The translations under genes and the position numbers were made by a program. Of a stretch of DNA of 64,000 nucleotides, positions 20,551 to 58,400 are shown one piece after another. Numbering within the stretch: position 1 is the first letter of the stretch; every line of letters starts with the position of its first letter. The stretch is from Caballeronia novacaledonica (GTDB lineage Bacteria; Pseudomonadota; Gammaproteobacteria; Burkholderiales; Burkholderiaceae), in the NCBI RefSeq assembly GCF_900258035.1, contig NZ_OGTP01000002.1:372001-436000 (forward strand), read 5' to 3'. A model generated the notes under the pieces. The model did not search any database. It was not told where the DNA came from and saw only the letters and a list, made by a program, of their open reading frames with translations.

Positions 20551-20595
20551 GCATGCAAAGGACAATTCGCGTGATTGTATGTGGCATTCAAAATG
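20551..20595. repeat. Dispersed GCATGCAAA repeat, site 1
   Basis: GCATGCAAAG at 20551 and GCATTCAAAATGC at 20584 are related units exactly 33 bp apart. The pair lies in the gap between the divergent flavin reductase and PadR genes, just upstream of the PadR promoter. Confidence 0.6.
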
Positions 20596-20634
20596 CGCGC
20601 GTCGGTGGGTGGTCGAATCCGGTTCGAGATTCGC

Positions 20635-20690
20635 TTGACAGACGCTCTTACGATATATATCTTTAGATATGTTTTACGACATATCTGGAG
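20635..20690 (+). promoter_or_regulatory. yqjI-like promoter with PadR-type operator
   Basis: A perfect -35 (TTGACA, 20635-20640) is followed after 17 bp by TATCTT (20658-20663). Three ATATCT/AGATAT half-sites overlap and follow the -10: ATATCT-TT-AGATAT (20657-20670) and AGATATGT-N6-ACATATCT (20665-20686). The ATGT/ACAT core is typical of PadR-family sites, so autorepression is likely. GGAG (20687-20690) is the ribosome binding site. Confidence 0.75.
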
Positions 20691-20697
20691 TGTTCCT

Positions 20698-21429
20698 ATG
20701 AAATCCCGTTGCTTTCAACGCGCGCGTGAAGCCGGTTTCCGCGCATTCGGATCGGCTTTTCCCTTCGATGCGCCCGAGTGGGCCGAGCGCTCGATTTTCG
20801 AACGCTGGGGCATGATCGGCCGTCATCGCCACGGTGGCGGCGGTCGTTTCGGCGGCGGCCCCGGTGGAATGGGCGGCATGGGTGGATTCGGCGGCGAAGA
20901 CGGCATGCCGCGCGGCCGCAAGTTCTCGTCCGACGATCTGCAACTGCTGCTGCTCGCGATGCTCGCCGAAGCGCCGCGTCATGGCTATGAACTCATCAAG
21001 GCGCTTGAAGACCGCTCGAACGGCTTCTACGCGCCGAGTCCCGGCATGGTCTATCCGGCGCTCACGTATCTGGAAGAACTGGGCTATGCGACCGTCGAAC
21101 TGGAAGGCAATCGCAAGCGCTACGCGCTCTCGGATGCGGGCCGCGACTATCTCGCGTCGAACCGCGAGCGCGTCGACATCATGCTCGCGAAGCTCACGCA
21201 TTTCGCACGCAAAATGGATCTCGTGCGCCGCGCCTACATGGGCGAGGAAGTCGACGACACGGCCAGCGACAGCGCCTGGGCGCCCGAGCTGATCGCCGCG
21301 CGCCGCGCGCTGAAAAAAGCGCTGCTGTTGCGTACCGATGCATCGCCGGACGAGCAACGCCGCATCGCCGCGATCCTTGCCCGTGCGACGGCCGAAATCG
21401 AACAGAATCCCGCGCCGAAGCAGGTATAA
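20698..21429 (+). CDS. yqjI: PadR-family metal-responsive regulator (YqjI-like)
   Basis: A 243-residue regulator. Residues 41-66 are His/Gly/Met-rich (GRHRHGGGG and GGMGGMGG), resembling the metal-binding N terminus of E. coli YqjI. From about 78 comes the PadR winged helix (LQLLLLAMLAEAPRHGYELI, SPGMVYPALTYLEELG), then a C-terminal dimerisation helix region. E. coli YqjI represses the neighbouring yqjH siderophore-reductase gene and responds to nickel and iron. The same neighbour follows here after 16 bp, which supports the assignment. This N-terminal region has far fewer His/Cys residues than E. coli YqjI, so its metal response may differ. Confidence 0.85.
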   Translation: MKSRCFQRAREAGFRAFGSAFPFDAPEWAERSIFERWGMIGRHRHGGGGRFGGGPGGMGGMGGFGGEDGMPRGRKFSSDDLQLLLLAMLAEAPRHGYELIKALEDRSNGFYAPSPGMVYPALTYLEELGYATVELEGNRKRYALSDAGRDYLASNRERVDIMLAKLTHFARKMDLVRRAYMGEEVDDTASDSAWAPELIAARRALKKALLLRTDASPDEQRRIAAILARATAEIEQNPAPKQV

Positions 21430-21445
21430 AAAGGAGCCATTCACG

Positions 21446-22276
21446 ATGACAGATTCCATCCTGCAAGACCGGCCCGATCTCGAAGTCACGCGCGTACGCC
21501 ACGCGCTCAAGTTCCGCCTGCTGCACGTTACGCGCGTGAAGCCGCTCACTCCGTCTCTCGTGCGCGTGACTTTCACGGGCGATTCGCTCGACGATTTCGT
21601 CAGCGCCTCCTTCGACGATCACGTGAAGCTGTTCTTCCCGCAACCCGGCGAGACGATGCCCGCAATCCCGCAAGCCGGCCCCGATGGCCCCACGTTCGAT
21701 CCCGCGAAGCCGCGTCCGATCGCGCGCGATTTCACACCGCGCCGCTTCGACCGCGAAGCGCGCGAGCTCGATATCGAATTCGCGCTGCACGAAGCCGGGC
21801 CCGCGACGGCATGGGCCGCGCAAGCCGCGCCGGGGCAGTGTCTCGGCATCGGCGGACCGCGCGGGTCGTTCGTGATTCCGACGCAGTTCGACTGGCATCT
21901 GATGATCGGCGATGAAACCGCGCTGCCCGCCATCGCGCGTCGTCTGGAAGAACTGCCTGAAGGCACGCGCGCCGCGACGCTGATCGAAGTTGCGGATCAA
22001 TCGGCGCGCATCGAATTCGATACGCGCGCCGATCTTTACGCGCAATGGCGCTATCGCAACGAGAGCGAGCATCCCGGCGGCGCGCTGCTGCTCGCCTTGC
22101 GCGAAACCTACGTGCCCGATGGCGAAGGCTACGTGTGGGCCGCGGGCGAAGCCACGCTGATGCGCGCGGTCCGCAAGCTGCTTTGCGATGAACGCGGCGT
22201 CGACAAAAAGCGCATTCGTGCTTCCGCTTACTGGAAGCGTGGCGAGCAAGGCGTGCACGAAACGATCGACGGATGA
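21446..22276 (+). CDS. yqjH: Siderophore-interacting FAD reductase (YqjH-like)
   Basis: A 276-residue member of the siderophore-interacting protein family, which uses FAD and NADPH to reduce ferric-siderophore complexes in the cytoplasm. Visible elements are VRVTFTGDSLDDF, the FAD-binding RDFTPRRFD segment, GPRGSFVIP and the C-terminal VWAAGEATLMRAVRKLL plus SAYWKRGEQG. Length and motifs fit YqjH/ViuB-type proteins. AAGGAG (21431-21436) precedes the ATG. The gene is co-transcribed with the PadR regulator, so iron/nickel-linked control is expected. Confidence 0.88.
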   Translation: MTDSILQDRPDLEVTRVRHALKFRLLHVTRVKPLTPSLVRVTFTGDSLDDFVSASFDDHVKLFFPQPGETMPAIPQAGPDGPTFDPAKPRPIARDFTPRRFDREARELDIEFALHEAGPATAWAAQAAPGQCLGIGGPRGSFVIPTQFDWHLMIGDETALPAIARRLEELPEGTRAATLIEVADQSARIEFDTRADLYAQWRYRNESEHPGGALLLALRETYVPDGEGYVWAAGEATLMRAVRKLLCDERGVDKKRIRASAYWKRGEQGVHETIDG

Positions 22277-22346
22277 TTCGCTGAGCGCAAAACCGCGATA
22301 ATGGCGGCACGGAGACATTCAACGCTCATCAAACGGTGGCGCAACC

Positions 22347-24092
22347 ATGACCGACACGTTCAAGAAAAAGCCCGCGCAATCAGGCGGCCTGCGCAAATCC
22401 CTGACGAGCTATGGAGACAACGGCTTCTCGCTGTTCTTGCGCAAGGCGTTCATCAAGGGTGCGGGTTATACCGACAGCGCGCTCGATCGTCCGGTGATCG
22501 GCATCGTCGATACGGGCAGCGCGTATAACCCGTGTCATGGCAATGCGCCGCAACTGATCGAAGCGGTGAAGCGCGGCGTGATGCTGGCGGGCGGCTTGCC
22601 GATGGACTTTCCGACGATATCGATCGCCGAATCGTTCTCGCAGCCGACGAGCATGTACTTGCGCAACCTGATGTCGATCGACACGGAAGAGATGATTCGC
22701 GCTCAACCGATGGACGCAGTCGTGTTGATCGGCGGATGCGACAAGACCGTACCGGCGCAACTCATGGGCGCGGCATCGGCGGGCATTCCCGCGATCCAGC
22801 TCATCACGGGCTCGATGCTCACGGGCGCGCATCGAGGCGAGCGCGTCGGCGCATGCACGGATTGCCGCCGCTACTGGGGCCGTTTTCGCGCGGAGGAAAT
22901 CGACGCGGAGGAAATCGCCGCCGTGAACAATCAACTCGTCGCGAGCGTGGGCACCTGTTCCGTGATGGGCACGGCAAGCACGATGGCCTGTATCGCCGAA
23001 GCGCTCGGCATGACGATGCCGGGCGGCGCATCGCCGCCCGCGGTCACGTCGGATCGCATGCGCATCGCCGAGCTTACCGGCACGCAAGCGGTGCGGATGG
23101 CGCACGATGACCTCAGCATCGACAAGATCCTCACCGCCGAGGCATTCGAGAACGCGATGCGCGTGCTGCTTGCGATCGGCGGCTCGACGAACGGCATCGT
23201 GCATCTCACCGCAATCGCGGGACGCATGGGTTATGACGTCGATCTAAAGGCGCTCGATCGCATGGGACGCGAAACGCCCGTGCTCGTCGATCTGAAGCCG
23301 TCCGGCTCGCATTACATGGAGGACTTCCACAAGGCGGGCGGCATGGCGACGCTCTTGCGCGAATTGAAACCGCTGCTCAACCTGAACACGTTGACCGTAA
23401 CCGGGCGCACGCTTGGCGAAGAGATCGAAGCCGCGGGGCCGGCATTCGAGCAGGATGTCGTGCGTCCCTTCGACAAGCCGATCTATCCGCAAGGCGGCAT
23501 CGCGGTGCTCGAAGGCAATCTTGCGCCGGGCGGCGCGATCATCAAGCAATCGGCGGCGGATGCGAAGTTGATGGAGCACGAAGGCCGCGCGGTCGTGTTC
23601 GAGAATGGCGCGGATCTCGCGGCGCGCATCGATTCCGACGATCTCGACGTCACGCCCGACGATATTCTCGTGCTGAAGAACATCGGACCGAAGGGTGCGC
23701 CGGGCATGCCGGAAGCCGGCTATATCCCGATTCCGCGCAAGCTCGCGGTGAAGGGCGTAAAGGATATCGTGCGCATCTCCGACGGACGCATGAGCGGCAC
23801 GGCCTTCGGCACCATCGTGCTGCATGTGACGCCGGAATCGGCGGTGGGCGGACCGCTCGCGCACGTTCGAAGCGGCGATCGCATTCGGCTCAGCGTGTCG
23901 AAGCGCGAGATCAGCCTGCTCATCAGCGATGAAGAACTCGCTGCGCGTGCGAAGGAAGCGCCCGTTGACGTGCCGGGTGCGGATCGTGGTTATCGGAAGT
24001 TGTTTTACGACACGGTGACGCAGGCGGACAAGGGCGTCGATTTCGATTTTCTGCGCGCAACGCAGACGCGAGGCGTGATTCCGCGCGGATGA
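22347..24092 (+). CDS. IlvD/Edd-family dehydratase (sugar-acid dehydratase-like)
   Basis: A 581-residue Fe-S dehydratase. Cysteines that could ligate the cluster lie in GGCDKTVPA, in ACTDCRRYWGRF and in GTCSVMGTAST. The family motifs SYGDNGFSLFLRKAFIKGAG and GRMSGTAFGTIVLHVTPE are also present. This pattern is that of the aldonate/xylonate/arabinonate dehydratase branch more than biosynthetic IlvD, so the likely substrate is a sugar acid. No other pentose-catabolism gene is adjacent, so a dihydroxy-acid dehydratase role cannot be excluded. It stands alone with a weak ribosome binding site. Confidence 0.82.
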   Translation: MTDTFKKKPAQSGGLRKSLTSYGDNGFSLFLRKAFIKGAGYTDSALDRPVIGIVDTGSAYNPCHGNAPQLIEAVKRGVMLAGGLPMDFPTISIAESFSQPTSMYLRNLMSIDTEEMIRAQPMDAVVLIGGCDKTVPAQLMGAASAGIPAIQLITGSMLTGAHRGERVGACTDCRRYWGRFRAEEIDAEEIAAVNNQLVASVGTCSVMGTASTMACIAEALGMTMPGGASPPAVTSDRMRIAELTGTQAVRMAHDDLSIDKILTAEAFENAMRVLLAIGGSTNGIVHLTAIAGRMGYDVDLKALDRMGRETPVLVDLKPSGSHYMEDFHKAGGMATLLRELKPLLNLNTLTVTGRTLGEEIEAAGPAFEQDVVRPFDKPIYPQGGIAVLEGNLAPGGAIIKQSAADAKLMEHEGRAVVFENGADLAARIDSDDLDVTPDDILVLKNIGPKGAPGMPEAGYIPIPRKLAVKGVKDIVRISDGRMSGTAFGTIVLHVTPESAVGGPLAHVRSGDRIRLSVSKREISLLISDEELAARAKEAPVDVPGADRGYRKLFYDTVTQADKGVDFDFLRATQTRGVIPRG

Positions 24093-24165
24093 TGGAGCGC
24101 GGCATCACGACGTCCGACAGGCACCTCGTCCAGCGATGCGACGAACGCGGCAGTATCGGCGATGA

Positions 24166-24210
24166 GCATGCGCGGACCATTTGCATTCAATATGTCGCAT
24201 GCAAGATGCC
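24166..24210. repeat. Dispersed GCATGCAAA repeat, site 2
   Basis: GCATGCGCGG (24166), GCATTCAATATG (24183) and GCATGCAAGATGC (24197) form a cluster of three related units, 17 and 14 bp apart. They lie upstream of the exported-protein gene at 24278. Confidence 0.55.
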
Positions 24211-24277
24211 GATCCGCGCGCTTCGTTTTAAGATAGCCACTTCTTCGCAACCGGCTCGATGCGCCAGGAGCGGCAGG

Positions 24278-25114
24278 GTGTTTCTATTCAAATGTGGACA
24301 TGGCGCGGCGCTGTGCCTGAGCTTCGCGTTGGCATGCGGAACCGTGTGCGCGCTTGCAGCCACACCGCGTGCTGGCCAGGCGGCGAGTGCCGTGGAAGCC
24401 GCGAGCGGCATATCGATGCAAGGCATCATGTCCGCCGATGCGCTTCCGCCCAACTTCACCGGCGACGATCCCGAGCACGTCCGCGACGCGCTCGCGGGGC
24501 ATCCTGCGCCGGGACAGCCGGCGTCGATCACGAACCGCGTGCGGGCGTTTCTCTCGCGTCCGTTTCGCAAGCCGCAAGGCGCGTCCGCGCCTGCGGGCGC
24601 CAGTCAGCCGCCCGGGCAGACCGATCGCACGTTCACGTTCGTGATTCCGGTTTCGTATGGCGTGCGCTATTTGTCGAAGAAGAAGGTGCTTTCGGTGAAC
24701 GTGTCACTGGCGGCGCCCGAAAATCCCGACGCCATTCTGCTCAAGCAGACGGTGAAGGGGCAAAGCGGCCGCAAGCTCGTCGTCGCGCCCGAGGCCAAGG
24801 AGAAGGGCTTCGTTCAGACCGTCGACGTCATCCAGTTGAAGCCGGAAAGCGGCCTCAAGACGACCGTCAGCGGCCGTGTCATGCTGCCGCGTTTCGATCA
24901 TGAACGCGGTAACGGCGACTTCGCAATCGTGCTCATCTGCTCGCTCGCGCCACCCTATCTGACCGACGACATCGAGCACAGCGCTCCCACCGACGAAGAG
25001 CCCACGGACATCACCCGCAGGACATCGACGTTGAATGGAAGGGTCGACGCGGCGTGGCTCATCGACAGCAAGGAAGGCACGATCATCACGAAGCGCTTGC
25101 ACCTCGTGAAATAG
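24278..25114 (+). CDS. Exported protein of unknown function
   Basis: A 278-residue protein starting at GTG 24278, chosen because AGGAG (24266-24270) sits 7 bases before it. A longer open frame upstream runs through a repeat cluster and looks non-coding. The N terminus is a signal peptide (hydrophobic ALCLSFALACGTVCALAA). A Pro/Ala/Gly-rich linker follows, then a probable beta-rich domain beginning at FTFVIPVSYGVRYLSKKKV. I do not recognise the family. Probably periplasmic. Confidence 0.65.
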   Translation: MFLFKCGHGAALCLSFALACGTVCALAATPRAGQAASAVEAASGISMQGIMSADALPPNFTGDDPEHVRDALAGHPAPGQPASITNRVRAFLSRPFRKPQGASAPAGASQPPGQTDRTFTFVIPVSYGVRYLSKKKVLSVNVSLAAPENPDAILLKQTVKGQSGRKLVVAPEAKEKGFVQTVDVIQLKPESGLKTTVSGRVMLPRFDHERGNGDFAIVLICSLAPPYLTDDIEHSAPTDEEPTDITRRTSTLNGRVDAAWLIDSKEGTIITKRLHLVK

Positions 25115-25328
25115 GTCGGAGTAGACGACTTTGTCTACCTGTCCGTCAGCATGCTCGCACCATCGCCAGGAACTTGACATCACGCGCGAACGCATGAGCG
25201 GACGTCCGTGCGAAACCATCGCGACCCGAACGACTACAATCGAGTGCGAACACGCTCAGCGCTATTCATCAGATGCACGTCATAGGCAAATGAGCCCTTG
25301 AATCACGATGTTTTCGATGCGAAGCGTC

Positions 25329-25362
25329 GCCATTGCCGCGCGCCAGATCGTGCGGCAATGGC
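25329..25362. promoter_or_regulatory. Perfect 11-bp inverted repeat before the diguanylate cyclase
   Basis: GCCATTGCCGC (25329-25339) and GCGGCAATGGC (25352-25362) are exact inverted copies separated by 12 bp. The repeat ends 7 bp before the GGAG ribosome binding site (25370-25373) of the next gene. It could be an operator or a leader-RNA hairpin controlling translation. Confidence 0.5.
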
Positions 25363-25380
25363 GTCACGCGGAGAACCTGA

Positions 25381-26961
25381 ATGCCCGCCAGATTGAACGC
25401 CGTTCGCAAGACCGGACGCATGGTCAGTCGCCGGCTGATGCGACGCAACAGCACCGCCGCGATGCGCTTCGCCGATGCGTTCTCGCGATTTCCGGCGCTC
25501 GCCGGGCTCATCGGCACGGCCATCGCCATTTCCATGGCCGTGTTGTCGTTTGCCGCGCTATGGCAAGGACGCGCGCAGGCGCTGCAGAACGCGCATCAGG
25601 CGGCGGCCAACCTGGTCGCCACCTTGAGCGCCGATATCGCGCGCAACGTCGAAGCGAGCGACCTCTCGCTGCGCACCATCGTCAGCGGCATGCAAAATCC
25701 CGCAGTGATGGCGCTTCCTCCCGACCTGCGCAAGCTCGTCCTGTTCGACGGCGCCACCGGCATGAACTATGTCGGCGGCGCGTTCGTGATGAATCGCGAA
25801 GGACGCATCGTCGTCGAACGCGATCCTTCCAAGCATGCGGACCTGCTCTTCAACGATCGCGAGTACTTCAAGGTTCACGCCGACCATCCCGACGCCGGCC
25901 TCTTCATTTCCGGGCCCTACGCGTCGCGTCTGCGCAACGGCGCGGACTCGCTCGCGTTGAGCAGGCGCATCGATGCGCCGGATGGTTCGTTCGCGGGCGT
26001 CGCCGTGATCGCGTTGAACGTCGCCTATTTCAAGAACCTGCTTTCGCGCGTGGACATAGGCCGGTCGGGCTCGGTATTCATTGTGCAGCAGGACGGCGTG
26101 ATGATCGCGCGCAAGCCTGCGCTGCCCTCGGACGGAGGCGGGTATGTCGCCAGGTCGCCGACCTTCGCCGTGATGCGGGACGCACCGTCCGGCTCGTATA
26201 TATCGAGATCGCCGCTCGACGGCGTGCGGCGGCTTTATACCTTCCAGCACGTGCCCGGCACGCAACTGATCGCGGCGGTCGCGCCCGCGGAGGATGAAGT
26301 GCTGGCCGCGTGGCACGAGCGCAGCATCGTCATTGGCGGCTTGACGATGATGTTCGGCGGCGGCTTCGTCGTCATCTCCTGGCTGCTCGCGATCTCGCTA
26401 AGGTCGCGCGCGATCGCGCAAGTGAAACTGCAACGGCTTGCCGGCACCGATTCGCTCACGGGCTTGAGCAACCGCCGCGCGCTGGACCGCCGGCTCGACG
26501 AAGAATGGCGGCGTGCCCGTCGCGCCGATCAACCGTTGTCCGCGTTGTTCGTCGACGTCGATTACTTCAAGCTCTACAACGACACCTACGGTCACGCGAT
26601 GGGCGACGATGCGCTGGTCGCTGTGGCCGATTGCATACAAAATTCCGCCAAACGGCCCGGCGACATCGTCGCGCGCTACGGCGGCGAGGAATTCGTGGTC
26701 GTGCTGCCGGGCGCCGACGCGAGCGGCGCGCTCACGTTCGCCGAACGCCTGCGCGTGAAGGTGGAAGATCTCGCCATCGCGAACAGCGCGGCGCCGAGGG
26801 GCGTGCTGACGATCAGCATCGGCATCGCGACCGGCTCGCCGCGTCAGGTGGAAGACGCGCTCAAGCTGCTCAATAATGCCGACGCGGCGCTCTATCTCGC
26901 CAAACGAACCGGACGCAATCGCTCGATCCATGAAGACAGTGTCGCGAGCGGCGGCGCGTAG
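25381..26961 (+). CDS. Membrane-bound diguanylate cyclase with periplasmic sensor
   Basis: A 526-residue protein that should make c-di-GMP from two GTP. A transmembrane helix (about 37-62) precedes a periplasmic region of about 250 residues that resembles a double-Cache sensor (DREYFKVH, ISGPYASR, DGSFAGVAVIALN). A second helix (about 316-338) leads to the GGDEF domain. The active site is intact as GGEEF (434-438), and the RPGD at 425-428 is a properly spaced inhibitory I-site, so product feedback is expected. The start at 25381 has GGAG 7 bases upstream. The ligand is unknown. Confidence 0.92.
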   Translation: MPARLNAVRKTGRMVSRRLMRRNSTAAMRFADAFSRFPALAGLIGTAIAISMAVLSFAALWQGRAQALQNAHQAAANLVATLSADIARNVEASDLSLRTIVSGMQNPAVMALPPDLRKLVLFDGATGMNYVGGAFVMNREGRIVVERDPSKHADLLFNDREYFKVHADHPDAGLFISGPYASRLRNGADSLALSRRIDAPDGSFAGVAVIALNVAYFKNLLSRVDIGRSGSVFIVQQDGVMIARKPALPSDGGGYVARSPTFAVMRDAPSGSYISRSPLDGVRRLYTFQHVPGTQLIAAVAPAEDEVLAAWHERSIVIGGLTMMFGGGFVVISWLLAISLRSRAIAQVKLQRLAGTDSLTGLSNRRALDRRLDEEWRRARRADQPLSALFVDVDYFKLYNDTYGHAMGDDALVAVADCIQNSAKRPGDIVARYGGEEFVVVLPGADASGALTFAERLRVKVEDLAIANSAAPRGVLTISIGIATGSPRQVEDALKLLNNADAALYLAKRTGRNRSIHEDSVASGGA

Positions 26962-26990
26962 AGCGAGGCACGCAACATCGCGCGTATCAT

Positions 26991-27045
26991 GCATCGTGAA
27001 TGCAATCGTGCATTTTGCATGCCGCATTCAAACTACATTCGAGCG
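26991..27045. repeat. Dispersed GCATGCAAA repeat, site 3
   Basis: ATGCAATCG (27000) and its degenerate copy CTACATTCG (27033) are 33 bp apart, as are GCATCGTGAA (26991) and GCATTCAAAC (27024). TGCATTTTGCATGC lies between them. The site is upstream of the LysE-family gene and aligns with site 9 (40619-40667). Confidence 0.62.
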
Positions 27046-27071
27046 TATTCAGCACAGAAGGAGACACTCCG

Positions 27072-27719
27072 ATGCCTGCATCCACCGCCGTATTCGCGAT
27101 ACTGTTCTCGCTGTTGCTTGGCGCGATGATTCCCGGCCCGAGTTTCGTGGTCGTGGCGCGCAATGCGATCGGCATATCGCGCGCCGATGGTCTCGCGACC
27201 GCGCTCGGCATGGGCGTCGGCGGCATCTTCTTCGGCGGAATTGCGCTCGCGGGACTCTATACGCTGCTCGTCGCCGTCGAGTGGCTCTACGTCGGGCTGA
27301 AGGTCGCGGGCGGCCTTTATCTGATCTACATCGCGTCGAAGATCTGGCGCGGCGCCGCGCAGCCGCTGCAAATGCCGACGACGCAAGACGATGCGCCCCC
27401 GCTCACGACGAGCGTGCGCAAGTCGTTCTGGCTCGGCCTGACGACACAGTTGAGCAATCCGAAGACCGCCATCTGGTATGGCAGCATCTTCGCAGCGCTC
27501 CTGCCGCAACATCCTCCGCTGTGGTGCTACTTCGTGCTCCCGCCGATGGTCTTCGCGATCGAGACGGGCTGGTACACGGTCGTCGCTCTGGGATTCTCCA
27601 GCAAGCGCCCGCGCGAGATGTATCTGCACGCGAGGAAATGGATCGACCGAATCGCCGCGAGCGTGATCGCGATGCTCGGGCTGCGGCTCGTGCTCACCGC
27701 AGGTAGAACCGGTTTGTGA
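27072..27719 (+). CDS. LysE/RhtB-family amino-acid exporter
   Basis: A 215-residue membrane protein with about six helices and the LysE/RhtB hallmarks: GAMIPGPSFVVVARNAIG near the N terminus, and FWLGLTTQLSNPKTAIWYGSIFA in the middle. The family exports amino acids or derivatives such as homoserine and threonine; the substrate here is unknown. AAGGAG (27058-27063) precedes the ATG. A strong hairpin downstream probably ends the transcript. The gene is flanked on both sides by copies of the dispersed repeat. Confidence 0.9.
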   Translation: MPASTAVFAILFSLLLGAMIPGPSFVVVARNAIGISRADGLATALGMGVGGIFFGGIALAGLYTLLVAVEWLYVGLKVAGGLYLIYIASKIWRGAAQPLQMPTTQDDAPPLTTSVRKSFWLGLTTQLSNPKTAIWYGSIFAALLPQHPPLWCYFVLPPMVFAIETGWYTVVALGFSSKRPREMYLHARKWIDRIAASVIAMLGLRLVLTAGRTGL

Positions 27720-27721
27720 TG

Positions 27722-27776
27722 TCGCATGCAAAAGACATAACGCAAACTGGTATCAAACATTTCGCATGCAAAAGAC
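27722..27776. repeat. Dispersed GCATGCAAA repeat, site 4
   Basis: The 15-bp sequence TCGCATGCAAAAGAC occurs twice without mismatch, at 27722-27736 and 27762-27776, 40 bp apart. It immediately follows the LysE-family stop codon. Confidence 0.65.
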
Positions 27777-27784
27777 GAAAGGCA

Positions 27785-27820
27785 GAAGGCCGGGCGCGCC
27801 GCGAGGCACGTCCGGCCTTC
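27785..27820. terminator. Convergent terminator hairpin
   Basis: GAAGGCCGG (27785-27793) pairs perfectly with CCGGCCTTC (27812-27820) across an 18-bp loop. It lies between the LysE-family gene (plus) and the small peptide gene (minus). On the minus strand T-rich sequence (CTTTCGTCTTTTG) follows, so it should work at least for the peptide gene. Confidence 0.7.
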
Positions 27821-27848
27821 GCTCACTGGCAGACTCGAAGCGTCCGCA

Positions 27849-28043
27849 TCACAGCGGATGCAGCTTGCCGTCGAGGTCCATCGTCCACTGTGAGCCGTCC
27901 TTGAACGTCAGCACGCCGCTTTGAGCGTCGATGTGAATGGGCTTGCCGGCCGGCTCCTTCTTGTCGCCTCCGACGATCCGGGACATCTCGGCAGAGGACA
28001 GTTTCTGGGCGTGTTGCAGATCGTCGAGCTTCAGGTTCGCCAT
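27849..28043 (-). CDS. Small peptide with a double-glycine leader (bacteriocin/RiPP-like)
   Basis: A 64-residue peptide starting at 28043, where AAGGAG (28051-28056) sits 7 bases upstream. Residues 15-26 read LSSAEMSRIVGG, an excellent fit to the double-glycine leader consensus LSxxELxxIxGG recognised by C39-peptidase ABC exporters. Cleavage after G26 would release a 38-residue, Cys-free, mildly charged core starting DKKEPAGKP and ending GKLHPL. No C39 transporter, immunity gene or modification enzyme is adjacent, so export would need a machine elsewhere. Alternatives are a non-secreted small protein that resembles a leader by chance. It ends at a clear terminator. Confidence 0.7.
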   Translation of the reverse strand: MANLKLDDLQHAQKLSSAEMSRIVGGDKKEPAGKPIHIDAQSGVLTFKDGSQWTMDLDGKLHPL

Positions 28044-30854: not shown

Positions 30855-30899
30855 GGCGGGTCGTGTCGATGGAATGCGATCAGGCATCGATCATAGCGC

Positions 30900-30928
30900 T
30901 GAATTTTGCATGTCGAATGCATAAAACC
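30900..30928. repeat. Dispersed GCATGCAAA repeat, site 5
   Basis: GAATTTTGCATG followed by TCGAATGCATAAAAC. It lies in the 93-bp gap between the DSD1-type and CoA-transferase genes. Confidence 0.5.
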
Positions 30929-30947
30929 AGTTGCCCTGAAGTCGGCT

Positions 30948-32186: not shown

Positions 32187-32187
32187 G

Positions 32188-32970: not shown

Positions 32971-32985
32971 GTCGCCTCCTTGGAT

Positions 32986-33047
32986 TGAATGCTGAATGCT
33001 AAATGCGTCATTCGATCCGGTTCAACGCATGCAAAATGCATTGAACC
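32986..33047. repeat. Dispersed GCATGCAAA repeat, site 6, with hairpin
   Basis: Three tandem heptamers TGAATGC/TGAATGC/TAAATGC (32986-33006) are followed by an inverted repeat, GGTTCAACGCAT (33019-33030) with ATGCATTGAACC (33036-33047), one mismatch, loop GCAAA. AAATGC occurs at 33001 and again at 33034, 33 bp apart. It lies between the MFS and crotonase genes and could act as an RNA hairpin or a protein site. Confidence 0.65.
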
Positions 33048-33062
33048 GCCGCGCCCGCCCGC

Positions 33063-37641: not shown

Positions 37642-37685
37642 CGTCGCTGTCGGTGAGTGCCAGAGCGCTGTGCGGTTCGTGGCCT

Positions 37686-37713
37686 TATGAATGCGTTATG
37701 CGAAATGCAATTC
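37686..37713. repeat. Dispersed GCATGCAAA repeat, site 7
   Basis: GAATGCGTTATGC followed by GAAATGCAATTC forms a loose palindrome. It lies in the 98-bp gap between the aminotransferase and the FAD/Fe-S dehydrogenase genes. Confidence 0.45.
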
Positions 37714-37739
37714 GACGGGAGGCAAACCCTCGATGCGGC

Positions 37740-38953: not shown

Positions 38954-38985
38954 TTAAATGTAATTTTGCATGCAAAATACAATAA
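38954..38985. repeat. Dispersed GCATGCAAA repeat, site 8 (perfect palindrome)
   Basis: ATTTTGCATGCAAAAT (38963-38978) is a perfect 16-bp palindrome, the cleanest copy of the repeat core. It lies 24 bp upstream of the aminotransferase start, inside the divergent promoter region, so it could also be an operator. Confidence 0.65.
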
Positions 38986-39015: not shown

Positions 39016-39072
39016 TAGGCCGAACGGCCTAGGGATAACCCGCTGGCGGTTTTTTCCGCTAGCGCCGGGTTA
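39016..39072. promoter_or_regulatory. Palindromes in the aminotransferase/GntR divergent promoter
   Basis: TAGGCC-GAAC-GGCCTA (39016-39031) is a perfect inverted repeat. A second, imperfect one pairs AACCCGCTGGCGG (from 39038) with CCGCTAGCGCCGGGTT (to 39072) across a T-run. Either may be bound by the adjacent GntR regulator; the T-run version also looks like a leader hairpin. Confidence 0.45.
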
Positions 39073-39103
39073 AAATTGCCGCAAATGAAATTAGAGGTAT
39101 TGA

Positions 39104-39859
39104 ATGCAAAATCCCGATTTACCTGAGATGCACATGTCCTCCTCGCTACCGAAGGTCGAGCGGCTGCGTCTGCACGACACCGTGGTCGATCATTTGCGCG
39201 GCTTCATCGTCGAGGGCTTGCTGGCGCCGGGCGTGAAGCTCAACGAACGCAAGCTATGCGAGACGCTGGGCATTTCCCGCACGCCGCTTCGCGAAGCGTT
39301 GAAAGTGCTGGCCGCCGAGGGCCTGATCGAGATTTCGCCGAATCGGGGCGCGTCGGTTTCGCAGATGAGCGAGTTCGAGATACGCGAGATGTTCGAGTTG
39401 ATGAGCGGGCTTGAAGCGTTTTCGGGCGAACTGGCGTGCGAGCGGATCACACCGCTCGAGATCGCGGAGATCAAGGCGCTGCATTACGCGATGCTCGCGT
39501 GCCGCGCGCAAAACGATCTCTCCGGCTACTACAGCCGTAACCAGGCCATTCACGACAAGATCAACGAAGCCGCGCGCAACACGGCCTTGCGCCAGACCTA
39601 TGTGTCGATCAACCGGCGTTTGATGGCGCTGCGTTTTCGCTCGAATTTCCAGACGCCGAAATGGGATAGCGCCATTCGCGATCACGAGGAGATGATCGAG
39701 GCGCTCGAGACGCGCGACGGGAGGCGCATGGGCGATATCCTGCGCAAGCATTTGCTGTCGAAGCGCGATGCGGTGCTCGCGGAGCGCACGTTGACGACAG
39801 TGAAGCCCGCAACGCAGAAAAAGCGCGCGACGGACAAGTCGACGTCGGATGAGCGCTAG
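39104..39859 (+). CDS. GntR-family (FadR/FCD type) transcriptional regulator
   Basis: A 251-residue regulator. The winged-helix domain includes VDHLRGFIVEGLLAPGVKLNE and LCETLGISRTPLREALKVLAAEGLIE. It is followed by an all-helical FCD ligand-binding domain containing YSRNQAIHDKINEAARN and DHEEMIEALETRD, with the histidines that usually bind a metal ion. It is divergent from the six-gene catabolic set and probably controls it, with a carboxylate of that pathway as inducer. The start at 39104 follows AGAGG at a good distance; the first codons come from a repeat-like GAATGCAAAAT. Confidence 0.9.
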   Translation: MQNPDLPEMHMSSSLPKVERLRLHDTVVDHLRGFIVEGLLAPGVKLNERKLCETLGISRTPLREALKVLAAEGLIEISPNRGASVSQMSEFEIREMFELMSGLEAFSGELACERITPLEIAEIKALHYAMLACRAQNDLSGYYSRNQAIHDKINEAARNTALRQTYVSINRRLMALRFRSNFQTPKWDSAIRDHEEMIEALETRDGRRMGDILRKHLLSKRDAVLAERTLTTVKPATQKKRATDKSTSDER

Positions 39860-40488: not shown

Positions 40489-40618
40489 GTTCGGCTCCTT
40501 TGAGTGGCTGATTTCGATGAATCGTTGCTGTCGATGTGAGGCATTGTCTTCGTCCAAAGTTAGCGAGGAATGAGCATCGCCACGGGGCGATCATTCAGGC
40601 CGCCGGGGTAAGATCGGC

Positions 40619-40667
40619 ATGCAATCGACCATCGCGCAAACGGCATTCAATATGCATTCGACCATCG
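40619..40667. repeat. Dispersed GCATGCAAA repeat, site 9
   Basis: ATGCAATCGACCATCG (40619) and ATGCATTCGACCATCG (40652) differ at one base and lie exactly 33 bp apart, with GCATTCAATATGC (40643) just before the second. The unit overlaps the start of the glycosylase gene and aligns with site 3. Confidence 0.68.
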
Positions 40668-45450: not shown

Positions 45451-45463
45451 CGGATCGCGCCCC

Positions 45464-47678: not shown

Positions 47679-47698
47679 CCAGGCATCGATGAGAAACA

Positions 47699-47733: not shown

Positions 47734-47847
47734 ATGCGCGCATCGCGTTACACTGCGAATCAACGCCGCTTCCAACACACACGACATGCTCCATGTCTTT
47801 CCCGGCACGCACGCGGTCACGAACGCACGCTCATGACGAGGCATCGC

Positions 47848-49203: not shown

Positions 49204-49217
49204 CCCAAGGATGCGCG

Positions 49218-50774: not shown

Positions 50775-50780
50775 GGCGTT

Positions 50781-51758: not shown

Positions 51759-51878
51759 CGTGCGAATCTCCTTGCAAAGCGAAAGGGATGTGCGAATGCT
51801 TGCGCATGGCGGCGAACGCCAGACATTAACTCACGTTGGCATGGCGTGCATTAATCAGTGGCGGCGAGCCGCTCGCCC

Positions 51879-52775
51879 TCACAGTGCCAGCACATTCACC
51901 GCCACATCCACATGATGCGCACCGCCGCCAAGAATCATCCCGCGCAATAGCGACACGTCGCTGTAATCGCGCCCCGTTGCAAGCGTGACATGATCGAGGT
52001 CCGCGAGCACATCGTTGGTCGGATCGAGATCGATCCATCCGCTTTGCGGACAATGCACCGACACCCACGCATGCGATGCATCCGCGCCGATCAACCGCGC
52101 ATGCCCCGGCGGCGGATCGTTGCGCAAATAGCCGCTCACATAGCGCGCCGGCAGCCCGAGCGAACGCAGACAACCGATCATCACCTGCGAGAAGTCCTGG
52201 CATACGCCCTGACGCAATTCGAATGCGCGCAATGCCGGCGTATCGAACGCGGTGGCCGAGGGCTTGTAGTCGAAATCCTCGTGTATGCGATGCATCAGAT
52301 CGATGGCGCCCGCGACGAGCGGCGTGCCCTCATCGAAACTCGCCTGCGCGTAGGCGCGCAATGCGTGATCGAGCGCGATATTGGGCGACGCATAACAAAA
52401 CTCGCTCTCCGGAAAAAACGATTCGCCCGCGCGATAGCGCATCCGTTGCGCGACGGTTTCCCACGGCGGCGTGGCTTCTGCATCGAGCGCATTCCAGCGC
52501 GGCGTGAGCCGCACCGTGGTTTCGCTGGTCATCGAAAGACGTTCGTGCGGTGCGTCGAGCGAGAAATACAGCACGTCATTGCCGAATGCATCGACACGGC
52601 TATGCACATACGACGGCACGGGTTCGATGCGTTCCGTATGCGATATCACCTGCTGCCACGGACAATGCAACGGTCGAATGGTAGCGAGATGCTGCGCGAT
52701 TTCGACGGGCGTCGAATAGCGATAGGTCGTGCGATGCGTCACCGCGAGCACGGTATCGTTCACACCGAGATTCAT
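51879..52775 (-). CDS. Transglutaminase-like cysteine protease/ligase
   Basis: A 298-residue protein of the bacterial transglutaminase-like family. The N-terminal beta domain (THRTTYRYSTPVEIAQHL) is followed by the papain-like core with cysteine in GVCQDFSQ, histidine in DASHAWVSV and aspartate in DLDPTND. Members act as peptidases or form isopeptide bonds. Its ATG overlaps the upstream ATP-grasp/alpha-E fusion gene by four bases, tying it to that system. Confidence 0.86.
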   Translation of the reverse strand: MNLGVNDTVLAVTHRTTYRYSTPVEIAQHLATIRPLHCPWQQVISHTERIEPVPSYVHSRVDAFGNDVLYFSLDAPHERLSMTSETTVRLTPRWNALDAEATPPWETVAQRMRYRAGESFFPESEFCYASPNIALDHALRAYAQASFDEGTPLVAGAIDLMHRIHEDFDYKPSATAFDTPALRAFELRQGVCQDFSQVMIGCLRSLGLPARYVSGYLRNDPPPGHARLIGADASHAWVSVHCPQSGWIDLDPTNDVLADLDHVTLATGRDYSDVSLLRGMILGGGAHHVDVAVNVLAL

Positions 52776-55396
52776 GACGACACCTGCGCGGAAAGGGTAT
52801 TCGCGTGACTGAAGTAGCGCGCGCTCACTTCATTCGATGCCGCGAACACCGATGTCACGAGTCTTTCGCATAGCGCGATCAACGCATCATGCCGGCCGTT
52901 CTCGTGCGTATCGCACAGCGCGGCGAGATCCGGCAATGCATCGTCGTGAACGAGCAGGTCCGCGAAACGCGTCGCTTGTGCGCGGCGCGCGCCGCCCGCA
53001 GCGGCCGCGATCTCATCGAGCTTCGTGCGCAGACGCGCATACACGCCATAGAGTCCGCGCGGATTGGTTTGATCGACGACGATCAGGTCGATCAGCGCGG
53101 GCACTTCGAGCCTGCCTGGATAGAGCGAACGATAGGTGAGCGTGCTGTCGAAGAGTTGCAGAAGCAGATCGAAGCCCGCGGGCGATGCGAGCGTGCCGCG
53201 CTCGGCGACCACGCGCAGAATCGTCGCCATCGTCGAGACGCGTTCGATATGCCGCCCGATGAAGAGGAGCCGCCATGCTTCGTCGCGCGTCATGCGATCG
53301 CCCTGCGCGCCGCTGATTGCGGACAGTTGCGTCGCAAGTTGTTCGAGCGCGCTAGCAAGCATCAGGCGATCATAGTCGCGACCGATGCGCGCGGTGCTTT
53401 CGTCATCCGTATCGGTGAACACGAGGCGTGCGAGCGCATCGCGAAAGTCGTTGCGCGACGCGAGAATCGCGCGCCAGTGGTCCGTGGAAAGCCGGTCGCG
53501 TATCTCGCCGCATACACGCGCCTGATCCGCGAGATTGCTGCCGATGCCCGTCGCCCTGCCCGATTCCGGCAGGCCCGCAACGAGCACGCGCTCGAAGGCC
53601 TGTGGCGTGCTGCGCGCAAGCGTATCGGCCGATGGAATCAGTCCGCATTCCGATGCGAGTTCCGTGAGCGTCGGAAAGAGTTCTTCGGCGACGCTGCCGT
53701 CGAGCATTCCGAGCAAGAGACGGCACAAGCGCACATTGTTTTCCGCGCGCTCGCCATAGCGGCCCGCCCAAAAGAGATTCTCGGCAGCGCGGCTCGACAC
53801 GATGCGATGCTTGCGCAAATCTCCCGGCTTCATCGGCGTGGGATGCAACGAAACCGCGCCGCCCGGCTGGCTCGACATCACCCAGGTATCGACACTGCTG
53901 CCGCCGAATTGCATGGATACCGTCGCGCGCTTGCCGGCCGCGAGCCGAGTGAAGCCGCCGGGCATCACGCTCCAGCTTCCGTCGATGTTCGCGATCGCGT
54001 AAGCGCGCAACACGCAAGGACGCGAACCGAGCGCGCCATCGTGAAAGCGTGGCGCGGTGGAAAATGGCAGATTCTGCTGTATCGTGAAAATATCCGGCGC
54101 ACGTTCGATGCGTTCCTTCCACGCCGCGATGTCCTGCACGCCCGCATCGATTCCCGGCGCCTGGTCGGACTGCGAACCCGGCCATGTCGGCGCAATGAGC
54201 GCGCTTTCCACGTGCTCGAAGACTTCGCGGCGCGCGGCTTCCTCGCCGCACCACCATGTCGGCACGGTCGGCAATTCGAGTCCTTCGCCCAGCAACGCTT
54301 GTGCGATGCCCGGCAAAAATGCATTGAGCGCGGGTGATTCCGTGAAGCCCGCGCCCGGCATGTTCGACACCATCACGTTGCCCGCGCGCATCACCTGCAA
54401 CAGGCCGGGCACGCCGATTGTCGAGTCGGCGCGCAATTCGACGGGATCGCAGAAGGCATCGTCGAGCCGCCGCACGACCGCGTGCACGCGCGACAAGCCG
54501 GCGAGCGTCTTGAGATAGAGCTTGTCGTGACGAACCGTGAGGTCCTTGCCTTCGACGAGCGTGACGCCGAGATAGCGCGCGAGAAACACATGCTCGAAAT
54601 AAGTCTCGCTGAAAGGCCCCGGACTCAGCAATGCGATATGCGGCGCTTCGTTCGATGCATCGCTGCGGCCGTCTTCGTCATCGCGCATCGTCGCGCGCGC
54701 GGCCTGCGCGATGGTCGAAATGAGTTGCGAATAAGTCGCCGCGAGACGGCTCACGCGCATCGCACGAAACGGATCGGCGAACAGGCTCGCGACGATCAAT
54801 CGATTTTCCAGCGCATAGCCGAGTCCCGAAGGCACTTCCGTCCGATGCGCGATGACCGTCCACGCACCCGATGGCGCACGCGCGAGATCCACCGCGACGA
54901 TCTGCAGAAAGCGGCCAAGCGGCGGCACGAAGCCCTTCACCGCGCGCAGATAGCCGGGATGTCCGAACACGAGCGCACTCGGCAAGAGCCCGCGTTGCAG
55001 CAGTGCCTGCGGGCCATAGACATCGGCGACGATCGCTTCCATCAGCCGTGCGCGTTGCGCGACGCCGCGTTCGATCACCGCCCACTCTTGCTCGTCGATG
55101 ATGAGCGGCAAGAGATCGAGCGACCACGCGCGCGGCTTGCCGTTATCGGCATAAACGTTGTACGTGATGTCGTTGTCGCGCACTTGCTGCGCAACGGCGC
55201 CGACACCGTCGTCGAGCCGCGCGATGCCCTGCTCGCCGAGCAACTCGAAGAAGTGTCGCCACGGCTCGCGCAACTGACCCGCGGCATCGCGCAATTCGTC
55301 CCAATGCCCTTCGCGCGCGGGCAGCGTACGCAGCAGCGCGAGCGCATCGATACGTGCCGCGGCGATATCGAAGGGCAAGGTCGATTGATAAGCCAA
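52772..55396 (-). CDS. Circularly permuted ATP-grasp fused to an alpha-E domain
   Basis: An 874-residue fusion. Residues 1 to about 500 form a circularly permuted ATP-grasp ligase (DITYNVYADNGKPRAWSLDLLP, PSGLGYALENRLIVASLF, and GGFTRLAAGKRATVSMQFGG near its end). The rest is the alpha-helical alpha-E domain (SRAAENLFWAGRYGERAENNVRLC, LLFIGRHIERVSTMATIL). In other genomes, as at 60147-62704 here, these are two proteins. Such ligases are predicted to make amide or peptide bonds with ATP. The only initiation codon before the conserved start is TTG 55396. It is 38 bp after the transglutaminase/DUF2126 gene. Confidence 0.88.
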   Translation of the reverse strand: MAYQSTLPFDIAAARIDALALLRTLPAREGHWDELRDAAGQLREPWRHFFELLGEQGIARLDDGVGAVAQQVRDNDITYNVYADNGKPRAWSLDLLPLIIDEQEWAVIERGVAQRARLMEAIVADVYGPQALLQRGLLPSALVFGHPGYLRAVKGFVPPLGRFLQIVAVDLARAPSGAWTVIAHRTEVPSGLGYALENRLIVASLFADPFRAMRVSRLAATYSQLISTIAQAARATMRDDEDGRSDASNEAPHIALLSPGPFSETYFEHVFLARYLGVTLVEGKDLTVRHDKLYLKTLAGLSRVHAVVRRLDDAFCDPVELRADSTIGVPGLLQVMRAGNVMVSNMPGAGFTESPALNAFLPGIAQALLGEGLELPTVPTWWCGEEAARREVFEHVESALIAPTWPGSQSDQAPGIDAGVQDIAAWKERIERAPDIFTIQQNLPFSTAPRFHDGALGSRPCVLRAYAIANIDGSWSVMPGGFTRLAAGKRATVSMQFGGSSVDTWVMSSQPGGAVSLHPTPMKPGDLRKHRIVSSRAAENLFWAGRYGERAENNVRLCRLLLGMLDGSVAEELFPTLTELASECGLIPSADTLARSTPQAFERVLVAGLPESGRATGIGSNLADQARVCGEIRDRLSTDHWRAILASRNDFRDALARLVFTDTDDESTARIGRDYDRLMLASALEQLATQLSAISGAQGDRMTRDEAWRLLFIGRHIERVSTMATILRVVAERGTLASPAGFDLLLQLFDSTLTYRSLYPGRLEVPALIDLIVVDQTNPRGLYGVYARLRTKLDEIAAAAGGARRAQATRFADLLVHDDALPDLAALCDTHENGRHDALIALCERLVTSVFAASNEVSARYFSHANTLSAQVSS

Positions 55397-55433
55397 TGTC
55401 GTCTCTGTTCTTTATTCGAATGATGATTGCACT

Positions 55434-58400
55434 TCAACGATAACGCAGGTCGAGCGTGAACGGAAATTCGAGGCTGCGTTTGCGGGCTTCGACATGCATG
55501 GCGCCGGGCGTATGGCCCGTTGCGAAGAAACGTGAGCGCCGGCGGCTCTCCGCCTCATATGCGTTGACGGGGAAGGTCTGATAGTTGCGTCCGCCCGGAT
55601 GCGCGACGTGATACTGGCAGCCGCCGATCGCGCGTCCCGTCCATGTATCGACGATATCGAAAGTGAGCGGCGCATGCGCGTCGATCGTCGGATGCAGCGA
55701 GGCCGCTTGCGACCATGCGCGAAAGCGCACGCCCGCGACATATTCGCTGACGCGTCCCGTAGGTTGCAACGGCAAGGTCTCGCCGTTCACGGTCACGACA
55801 TGCCGATTGCCATTCAGACCGAGCACGCGCACTTCGAGACGTTCGACGGACGAATCCACGAAACGCACCGTGCCGCCGATCGCGCCCTCTTCGCCCATCA
55901 CATGCCACGGTTCGAGCGCATTGCGGATTGTGAGCGCGATGCCGTTCGTATCGTATGAACCAGCGAGCGGGAAGCGGAACTCGAAGTGCGGTGCGAACCA
56001 GCTCTGCTCGAATGCAAAGCCCGCTTCGCGCAGATCGGCGATCACATCGTCGAAGTCCATTTGCACGAAAGTGCCGAGCATGAAGCGGTCATGCAGTTCG
56101 GTGCCCCAGCGCGTGAGGCGCGCGGTATAAGGCGTGTTCCAGAAGCGCGCGACGAGCGCACGCAACAGCAGTTGCTGCACGAGACTCATGCGTGCGTGCG
56201 GGGGCATCTCGAAGCCGCGCAATTCCAGCAAGCCGAGCCGGCCAGTCGGACCATCGGGCGAATACAGCTTGTCGATGCAGAACTCCGCGCGATGCGTATT
56301 GCCCGTCACATCGATCAGAATGTTGCGCAATATGCGGTCGATGAGCCACGGCGGCACGGTCGCACTGTCGCGGCCGCCGAGCAGGTCGAGTTGACGCTGC
56401 AATTCGGCGAACGCGATTTCCAGTTCATACACCTGATCGTTGCGCGCTTCGTCGACGCGAGGCGCCTGACTCGTCGGACCGATGAACAGGCCGGAGAACA
56501 GCGTCGACAAGGAAGGATGGTTGTGCCAATAGCGGATCAGGCTCGCGGGCAGATCGGGACGGCGCAGGAAAGGACTGTCGGCGGGCGTCGCGCCGCCGAG
56601 CACGAAGTGATTGCCGCCGCCGGTGCCGGTATGACGACCGTCGAGCATGAACTTCTCCGGGCTCAGATAGGACTCGTGCGCCGCGTTGTAGAGAAACTCC
56701 GTGTGCTCGACGAGATCGTTCCAGTTCGCCGCAGGATGAATATTCACTTCGATCACGCCAGGATCGGGCGTCACCTGCAACATCTTGAGGCGCGCATCGC
56801 GCGGCGGCGGATAACCTTCGACGATGACCGGAATCCTCAGATCGGCGGCGGTCGCTTCGACGGCGGTCAGAAGATCGAGATAGTCATCCAGCGAGGTGAG
56901 CGGGGGCATGAAGACATGCATGAGCTTGTTGCCGTTGCCGAGTTTCTCCAAGGCATCGGCTTCCGCTTTGGGACCGGCCGCACGCGACGGATCGCGCGCT
57001 TCCACGCACAGCGCAATGCGCGCGATCCAGCCCGCCGACTCCCCTCGTTGCGGCTTGCGATCGCGTGCGTCACCCGATGCGCCCGGTTCACCCGGTTCGC
57101 CGGATGCTCCGGTGCGCCCCGTCACGCGCGCATCGGCATTTTGCATGCGTGATTCATTGTCCAAATCCGCATATTGCATGCGTAATTCAGTCGCCGTGCG
57201 CAACGGCGTCGACGGCGCGAACGGGTCGTGTGCGTGCTGCCACGGATAGTCGGCTTCCGACACCCACGGCAGGGAGTCGAGCGGCACGCGGTATCCCATC
57301 GGCGAATCGCCCGGAACCAGGTACATGCGCTCGTCGCGGAAGAACCACGGGCCGCTCACCCAGCGGCTCGGCTGCGCCTCTTTGCCATCTTCACGCGCGA
57401 TGGGCAATGCGTAACCGGTGACGGACGGCAAACCCGCATCGAACACGCGGCGCAGGCGGGCGCGTTCCAGTTCGTCGCCGAGGCGCGAATCGAACGGATC
57501 GACATTCACCGGCAAGCGGCGCTCGCGCCACAGGTAGTACCACGTATCCTCGTATCCCGGTTGAATGTATTTTGCATCCAAGGAGAGCTTGCCTGCGAGA
57601 TGTCGAATGAAGCGCGCGGCGTCATCCGACGTGTACGACGCCGGTTGCCGTTCATCCGCGAAGAGCGCCGGATCGTGCCAGCACGGTTCGTCGTCCGCGC
57701 GCCAGAACAGCGACAGCGCCCAGCGCGGCAACTGCTCGCCCGGATACCACTTGCCCTGTCCGATGTGCAGGAAGCCACGCGCACCGTACTGCGCGCGCAG
57801 CTTGTCCATCAGCGAAACAGCGTAGGCGCGCTTCGTCGGTCCGAGCGCGTCGGTGTTCCATTCCGGCTCGTCGCGGTCGCGCACGGCAACATAAGTCGGC
57901 TCGCCGCCCATCGTGAGGCGCACGTCCGATGCATTCAATTGCGCATCGACGTGCCCGCCCATGCGCAGCACCGCGTTCCAGTCGTCGTCGCTATACGGCT
58001 TCGTGACGCGCGGCGTTTCGAGTACGCGCTCGATCGACATCGCGTGATCGAATTCGACTTCGCATTCGTCCACTGCGCCGGAGACCGGCGCCGCGCTGTC
58101 CGGCTCCGGCGTGCATGCGACGGGAATATGTCCTTCACCCGCGAGCAAGCCGGAGGTCGGATCGAAACCGATCCAGCCCGCGCCCGGCAGAAACACTTCG
58201 CACCATGCATGCAGATCGGTGAAATCCACCTCTGTTCCGCTCGGGCCATCGAGCGATTTCGTATCGGGTGCGAGTTGCAGCAGATAACCCGACACGAAGC
58301 GCGCGGCGAGGCCGAGATGGCGCAGCGTTTCGACGAGCAGCCAGCCCGAATCGCGGCACGAGCCGGCCGCGCTTTCGAGCGTTTCCTCGGGCGTCTGCAC

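What the first reader, a model, noticed from the sequence alone, without database searches (positions are those of the whole stretch)
20551..57189. Family of short AT-biased repeats (GCATGCAAAATGC / GCATTCAA), many with 33-bp phasing
At least eleven sites share a core related to GCATGCAAAATGC or GCATTCAA. Ten lie wholly or mainly in gaps between genes from 20.5 to 41.6 kb, and one is inside a gene at 57.1 kb. In five sites (20551/20584, 27000/27033, 33001/33034, 40619/40652, 57141/57174) related units are exactly 33 bp apart, about three DNA turns. None was seen in the first 20 kb. Constant phasing and sequence conservation beyond any gene argue for a mobile short repeat, a chromosome-organising site, or an operator for a global DNA-binding protein.
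Basis: seen in the sequence. Interest (0 to 1): 0.82.

Follow-up and report, generated by a model that had tools for sequence, protein, structure and literature searches.

The report
Seven-base repeat arrays around GntR gene
In one group of Caballeronia bacteria, arrays built from a repeated seven-base DNA word sit in many gaps between genes around one regulator gene; they are likely clustered docking sites for that regulator, or for another protein with the same DNA preference, and would show how one ancestral switch can multiply across a neighbourhood of genes.

Summary
The repeats are real and far above chance. They are degenerate arrays of a 7-bp half-site (GMATNNN, M = A or C) with dyads GMAT-N3-GMATKC-N3-ATKC. 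The genome is Caballeronia-like. Sites concentrate on contig C59 and are densest within about 20 kb of a GntR/FCD regulator gene (39104-39859). Its divergent promoter holds the perfect dyad ATTTTGCATGCAAAAT (38963-38978). Array-less relatives (Caballeronia SBC1, Burkholderia arboris) keep this one dyad and no other, so it is ancestral and the arrays are an addition in one Caballeronia clade. Arrays hold orthologous gaps (upstream of the FAD oxidoreductase and DSD1 genes in 8 of 8 array-bearing replicons) while their sequence turns over, and half-site bases diverge less than spacers and flanks. Best reading: cooperative operator arrays for this GntR or a regulator of the same specificity. The binder is inferred, not shown: one array-bearing genome has no detectable gntR and contig C55 has arrays without a GntR neighbour, so a separate clade-specific DNA-binding protein is a serious rival. 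A mobile repeat, RNA hairpins and a centromere fit worse.

The parts
39104..39859 (+). GntR/FCD regulator gene (251 aa), centre of the array domain and best candidate binder
   Evidence: Pfam GntR 3.5e-17 and FCD 1.9e-22; density falls away from it
38963..38978 (.). perfect dyad ATTTTGCATGCAAAAT in the aminotransferase/gntR divergent promoter; ancestral GntR operator (inferred)
   Evidence: conserved in 4 relatives, in array-less SBC1 and B. arboris, and in altered form in Cupriavidus
20544..20596 (.). array, pair 33 bp apart, between flavin reductase (-) and PadR (+)
24180..24209 (.). array just after the IlvD/Edd gene; gene context not resolved
   Evidence: 26 bits
26990..27036 (.). array upstream of the LysE transporter gene
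   Evidence: 31 bits; upstream of lysE in 4 of 7 array-bearing replicons
27719..27776 (.). array, dyads 27727/27760, downstream of lysE
30900..30926 (.). array upstream of the DSD1-type (PF14031) gene
   Evidence: 28 bits; 8 of 8 array-bearing replicons
32980..33050 (.). array, dyads 33 bp apart, upstream of the enoyl-CoA hydratase gene, inside a strong hairpin
37685..37720 (.). array upstream of the FAD/Fe-S oxidoreductase gene, inside the operon
   Evidence: 25 bits; 8 of 8 array-bearing, 0 of 3 array-less
40610..40665 (.). weaker array at the start of the alkA gene
   Evidence: above 17 bits at alkA in 5 of 8 array-bearing replicons, not in this genome
41600..41633 (.). array between alkA and the next gene
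   Evidence: 24 bits
57136..57188 (.). two dyads 33 bp apart (an 11-codon tandem) inside the DUF2126 gene 55434-58949 (-)
   Evidence: kept in NK8, zhejiangensis and insecticola

Best explanation
The repeats are arrays of a 7-bp half-site that likely act as operators for the GntR/FCD regulator encoded in their midst (39104-39859), or for another regulator with the same DNA preference. Shown: half-sites lie on a 7-bp lattice, head-to-tail or as dyads, with a second block mostly 26, 33 or 40 bp away. Shown: the dyad matches the ancestral site in the regulator's own promoter; the arrays belong to one Caballeronia clade, lie mostly between genes and are densest near gntR. Inferred: GntR dimers sit on the dyads and bind cooperatively along head-to-tail half-sites, as NanR does on its GGTATA repeats, and two blocks may be bridged as proposed for the tetrameric Atu1419. 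Inferred: binding just upstream of start codons represses genes of the catabolic cluster and its neighbours until an inducer releases it. Inferred: in this clade operators multiplied outward from the ancestral one.
For: Lattice and spacing. Dyad in the gntR promoter of array-bearing and array-less species, alone in the latter. Gaps with an array: 14 of 24 within 5 kb of gntR, 8 of 31, 3 of 19, 7 of 22, then 0 of 16 at 20-30 kb and 1 of 3 at 30-40 kb, in four annotated stretches. Sites lie nearer to GntR-family genes than rotated ones: p 0.003-0.009 on insecticola p1, 0.04-0.08 on C59; not independent. Arrays before the FAD oxidoreductase gene 8 of 8 and DSD1 8 of 8 array-bearing replicons, 0 of 3 array-less at the FAD gene. 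Half-site bases differ at 91 of 782, spacers 50 of 330, flanks 986 of 5381 (sums mine). GntR relatives bind direct repeats cooperatively (NanR) and VanR-group members bind a 10-bp palindrome. GntR tails tend to be longer and more basic in the 16 array-bearing than in the 7 array-less proteins, with arationis intermediate and grimmiae weak; this follows phylogeny.
Against: Ca. P. calva has arrays but no gntR match at E 1e-60 and no close HTH relative (best 48%); its assembly completeness is unknown. C55 has 8 array loci and no GntR gene found near them. Eleven C59 loci lie 160-320 kb from gntR. Array-less species carry gntR too, so gntR is not sufficient. In tandem gaps the sites show no preference for the downstream start (mean fraction 0.49, 15 sites). 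Divergent gaps are favoured over tandem ones only modestly. Tandem 7-bp half-sites are not the usual FadR-subfamily operator, TKGT/ACMA.
Confidence: 0.42

Rival explanations
1. The arrays bind a different, still unidentified DNA-binding protein of this clade, for example a ribbon-helix-helix or nucleoid protein that assembles on 7-bp repeats and organises or silences a domain; the likeness to the GntR site is coincidence or shared ancestry.
For: Arrays without gntR in Ca. P. calva; C55 cluster without a GntR neighbour; sites in most kinds of gap and in some genes; the omega protein of pSM19035 assembles on 7-bp repeats.
Against: No candidate protein found; the array dyad matches the gntR promoter site and the densest cluster is centred on gntR.
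Confidence: 0.33
2. The arrays are a selfish or mutational repeat family of this clade that grows by slippage of 7-bp units and has no bound protein.
For: Some arrays look like expanded 7-bp tandems, for example in grimmiae and Sq4a; clade-limited.
Against: Half-site bases diverge less than spacers and flanks; the same gene starts are occupied with different sequences; no fixed unit length or ends, and gap length does not require insertion.
Confidence: 0.14
3. The arrays mark or organise the replication-terminus half of the third replicon, in the manner of matS.
For: Sites on both sides of the skew maximum and dif-like site on C59 and insecticola p1; 92% of 39 insecticola sites lie in the terminus half.
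Against: Rotation p = 0.17; the two bands are linked by an inversion about the terminus; the clustering follows gntR.
Confidence: 0.07
4. The arrays work as RNA hairpins that tune transcript ends or stability.
For: The 32980-33050 array folds far better than shuffles (z -5.95).
Against: The other 7 of 8 stretches folded give z from -1.64 to 1.37; divergent gaps are well represented.
Confidence: 0.04

Closest known systems
NanR of E. coli (GntR/FCD family) on (GGTATA)3 repeats (PMC8012715, passages)
   Same: GntR/FCD-type regulator proposed here; short direct repeats bound cooperatively by several dimers.
   Different: NanR repeats are GGTATA direct repeats in one operator; here 7-bp half-sites in both directions with dyads, in dozens of gaps. 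Binding not tested here.
Atu1419 and the VanR group of GntR/FCD regulators (PMC7797058, passages)
   Same: 10-bp palindrome ATGTATACAT resembles the core TTGCATGCAA; a tetramer can hold two palindromes.
   Different: Atu1419 palindromes are 109-190 bp apart and few; no head-to-tail half-sites.
Omega (ParB) of pSM19035 and its parS heptads (PMC9499535, passages)
   Same: 7-bp repeats in direct and inverted order overlapping promoters, one protein dimer per repeat.
   Different: Sequence WATCACW, 7-10 contiguous repeats, six sites at partition and copy-control genes, ribbon-helix-helix protein; no 33-bp block spacing reported in the passages seen.
matS/MatP terminus sites (recalled; listing only)
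   Same: Many dispersed short palindromes in the terminus half of a replicon.
   Different: Different sequence; here multi-half-site arrays, clustered on one locus; enrichment about the terminus not significant.

Membership tests
GntR/FCD (VanR-group) operator | short palindrome with a central AT, in the promoter of an FCD-type GntR gene | tested here: met
   38963-38978, conserved across array-bearing and array-less species; holds for this dyad, not for every array
GntR/FCD (VanR-group) operator | binding by the cognate regulator | not testable with these tools
   needs EMSA or ChIP
GntR/FCD (VanR-group) operator | arrays occur only where the regulator gene is present | tested here: not met
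   Ca. P. calva has arrays but no gntR match; completeness of that assembly unknown
NanR-type direct-repeat operator | tandem repeats at constant short spacing | tested here: met
   7, 14 and 21 bp peaks
omega/parS heptads of pSM19035 | WATCACW heptads at partition genes | tested here: not met
   different sequence; ParB genes of the relatives' replicons lie far from the arrays and none was found on C59 or C55
ParABS centromere (parS) | sites near the replication origin and parAB | tested here: not met
   insecticola p1: ParB at 1.5 kb, 36 of 39 sites in the terminus half
matS/MatP | sites significantly confined to the terminus region | tested here: inconclusive
   92% in the terminus half, rotation p = 0.17
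REP/MITE-like mobile repeat | copies of constant length and ends inserted into gaps | tested here: not met
   varied anatomy; arrays in gaps of 111-132 bp where array-less gaps are 99-122 bp, although other array gaps are about 180 bp

The most novel reading that the evidence does not exclude
A regional DNA code: in one Caballeronia clade a protein, GntR or an unknown polymerising partner, reads a 7-bp lattice that was seeded at one ancestral operator and spread into many gaps within about 20 kb, turning a single-promoter switch into a domain-wide one, with secondary domains elsewhere on the replicon and on another contig.
Probability: 0.35. Interest if true: 0.82.

Novelty: new variant of a known kind. 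Interest (0 to 1): 0.62.

Why it matters
Array-bearing and array-less sister species share the regulator, its operator and much of the gene cluster. That is a natural before-and-after comparison of how binding sites multiply around a regulator gene, and it makes directly testable whether regulators gain targets preferentially near their own gene. The 7-bp lattice with a fixed block offset also predicts a specific cooperative protein-DNA geometry.

Tried and rejected
Chance: rejected. Mobile element: disfavoured on varied ends and gap lengths. RNA hairpin: 1 of 8 stretches folds unusually well. Partition centromere: ParB genes lie elsewhere. Terminus band: seen, not significant by rotation. Close GntR paralog as binder: in five genomes no HTH above 52% identity apart from gntR itself. 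A small gene beside a strong C59 site as binder: it reads as a glycine-rich secreted peptide (judged by eye). A first, looser profile (threshold 11, 433 sites) picked up many coding-sequence hits and was replaced by a 30-bp profile at threshold 17. That profile is trained on sequences that it scans, so its 7-bp spacing and symmetry are partly built in; one search is the profile-free check. Its controls: reversed sequence 0 and order-2 Markov sequence 0 on C59, but Markov gave 3 on SL2Y3 against 31 real. The backwards-pattern control of the genome search is lenient for these words; contig C30 (160 kb sampled) and other genera are the fairer background. Notebook entry and earlier planning counted 6 places on C55; the listing shows 5. 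In one search one of the 10 sites counted as genic lies before the first annotated gene of its stretch and is really unassigned. Literature: searches listed 0 papers; one search listed 10 and one search listed 8 of 13, of which I saw titles and abstract openings only; none concerns these arrays.

Full report
What is there. The window is bases 372001-436000 of contig C59 (497,390 bp) of a 6.78-Mb genome in 72 contigs. Similarity to Caballeronia replicons (NK8 pNK81, zhejiangensis p1, insecticola p1; best places 81-88% identity) places it in or near that genus. GCATGCAAAATGC with up to 2 mismatches is found 26 times in the window against 2.83 expected. The palindrome ATTTTGCATGCAAAAT with up to 3 mismatches has 30 places in the genome: 17 on C59 (13 of them in this window), 5 on C55 and 8 elsewhere; backwards control 4. 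TGMATNNNGMATKCNNNATKCA with up to 2 mismatches has 67 places, 29 on C59 and 10 on C55, contigs that make up 8.5% of the genome.

Anatomy. A symmetric 30-bp profile learned from C59, C55 and four relatives gives G[CA]AT-N3-G[CA]AT[GT]C-N3-AT[GT]C. Hits above 17 bits: 55 on C59 (0 on the reversed and 0 on Markov sequence) and 2 in 160 kb of C30 (1 reversed). Dyad centres up to 120 bp apart were only 7, 14, 21, 28, 35 or 19, 26, 33, 40, 47 bp apart. Around 92 loci, half-sites in the same direction peak at 7, 14, 21 and at 19, 26, 33, 40, 47; a left-pointing half-site followed by a right-pointing one peaks at 17, 24, 31, 38, 45, apart from short distances within one unit. My reading: 7-bp half-sites abut head-to-tail or head-to-head, and back-to-back half-sites are held apart by a fixed gap, so 33 bp is one member of a series. 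Without the profile, GCAT words in the domain peak at the same distances and control stretches do not.

Place. In 250 kb of annotated relatives (SL2Y3 twice, M1242, grimmiae, Sq4a) 38 of 48 sites are intergenic, although gaps are 30 of 250 kb; of gaps of 50 bp or more, 17 of 35 divergent, 18 of 96 tandem and 2 of 6 convergent ones hold a site. In four of these stretches the share of gaps with a site is 14 of 24 within 5 kb of gntR, then 8 of 31, 3 of 19, 7 of 22, 0 of 16 at 20-30 kb and 1 of 3 at 30-40 kb. Arrays recur at the same gene starts: FAD oxidoreductase 8 of 8, DSD1 8 of 8, alkA 5 of 8, ECH 4 of 7 and lysE 4 of 7 array-bearing replicons that have the gene in the stretch; 27 of these 29 lie 12-51 bp upstream of the start codon as placed by homology. 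Array-less relatives have none at the FAD gene (0 of 3). Half-site number and spacer letters differ freely at these shared places. Against a simple promoter rule, tandem-gap sites overall show no preference for the downstream start.

Constraint. Of 34 C59 sites, 28 had an aligned ortholog. Half-site positions differ at 91 of 782 bases, spacers at 50 of 330, flanks at 986 of 5381 (my sums over four relatives). The two central bases differ in 2-4% of about 54 comparisons, the tolerant C/A position in about 20%. These comparisons are not phylogenetically independent.

History. In 120 genomes of the family the pattern count is 36-89 in 9 of 11 members of the genus and 19 and 21 in the other two; of 109 genomes of other genera 3 reach 36. 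At the DUF938 locus of C55 (80 best loci kept of 578), 10 of 14 loci titled Caballeronia, B. peredens or Ca. P. calva hold a site; arationis, terrestris, sordidicola and mineralivorans do not; 1 of the 66 other loci does. That Ca. P. calva belongs with Caballeronia is recalled. The gntR stretches of array-less SBC1 (44.7 kb), B. arboris (14 kb) and Cupriavidus (15 kb) hold one site each, in the gntR promoter. So the dyad at 38963-38978 is old and the arrays are new.

Who binds. The array dyad matches the conserved site of the gntR promoter, whose core TTGCATGCAA resembles the VanR-group palindrome ATGTATACAT (PMC7797058, passages). GntR-family members can bind direct repeats, cooperatively in NanR (PMC8012715; PMC4494728; passages). 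GntR C-terminal tails tend to be longer and more basic in 16 array-bearing than in 7 array-less proteins, with exceptions. Against this, Ca. P. calva has arrays but no gntR match, C55 has arrays without a GntR gene among the proteins examined, array-less species have gntR, and no close HTH paralog was found. I give the GntR reading 0.42 and an unidentified clade-specific binder 0.33.

Other readings. Arrays flank the terminus on both sides (skew maximum 276,346 and dif-like site 276,738 on C59; 642,505 and 643,460 on insecticola p1), but rotation gives p = 0.17 and the bands are related by an inversion. A mobile element is unlikely. RNA folding is unusual for one stretch of eight.

Limits. The binder and any effect on transcription are inference. 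The profile was trained on sequences that it scans. Annotated relatives are close kin, so k-of-n counts are not independent trials. Gene context in the window rests on ORF lists, Pfam and homology, not on a gene caller.

Noticed in passing
window 32980-33050: Two stable predicted hairpins (z -5.95) contain the array in the gap upstream of the enoyl-CoA hydratase gene; the array-bearing kin zhejiangensis, NK8 and insecticola keep much of the sequence.
   Followed up: partly
window 39030-39080: A stretch between the aminotransferase gene and gntR, with an inverted repeat, is nearly invariant in NK8, zhejiangensis and insecticola; function unknown.
   Followed up: no
window 57136-57188: The DUF2126 gene carries an 11-codon tandem whose two copies each hold a dyad; kept in three relatives, while SL2Y3, whose homologous genes lie at 411-421 kb, shows no palindrome match there.
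   Followed up: partly
G000:C55:42000-76117 (L034, L035): A second array cluster (8 loci) without homology to insecticola p1 or the first 400 kb of SL2Y3 p1, near LysR, AsnC, porin and DUF938 genes; its replicon is not identified.
   Followed up: partly
G000:C59:276346-276761: GC-skew maximum and a weak dif-like sequence (7 mismatches to a recalled pattern) mark a likely terminus; the same pair is at 642,505 and 643,460 of insecticola p1.
   Followed up: partly
G000:C42:91548-91563: ATTTTGGATCCAAAAT, a related but distinct palindrome, occurs once here and once each in NK8, zhejiangensis and insecticola replicons; possibly a VanR-type operator (recalled).
   Followed up: no
G000:C43:9179-9233: An isolated array pair outside C59 and C55, two dyads 26-33 bp apart.
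   Followed up: no
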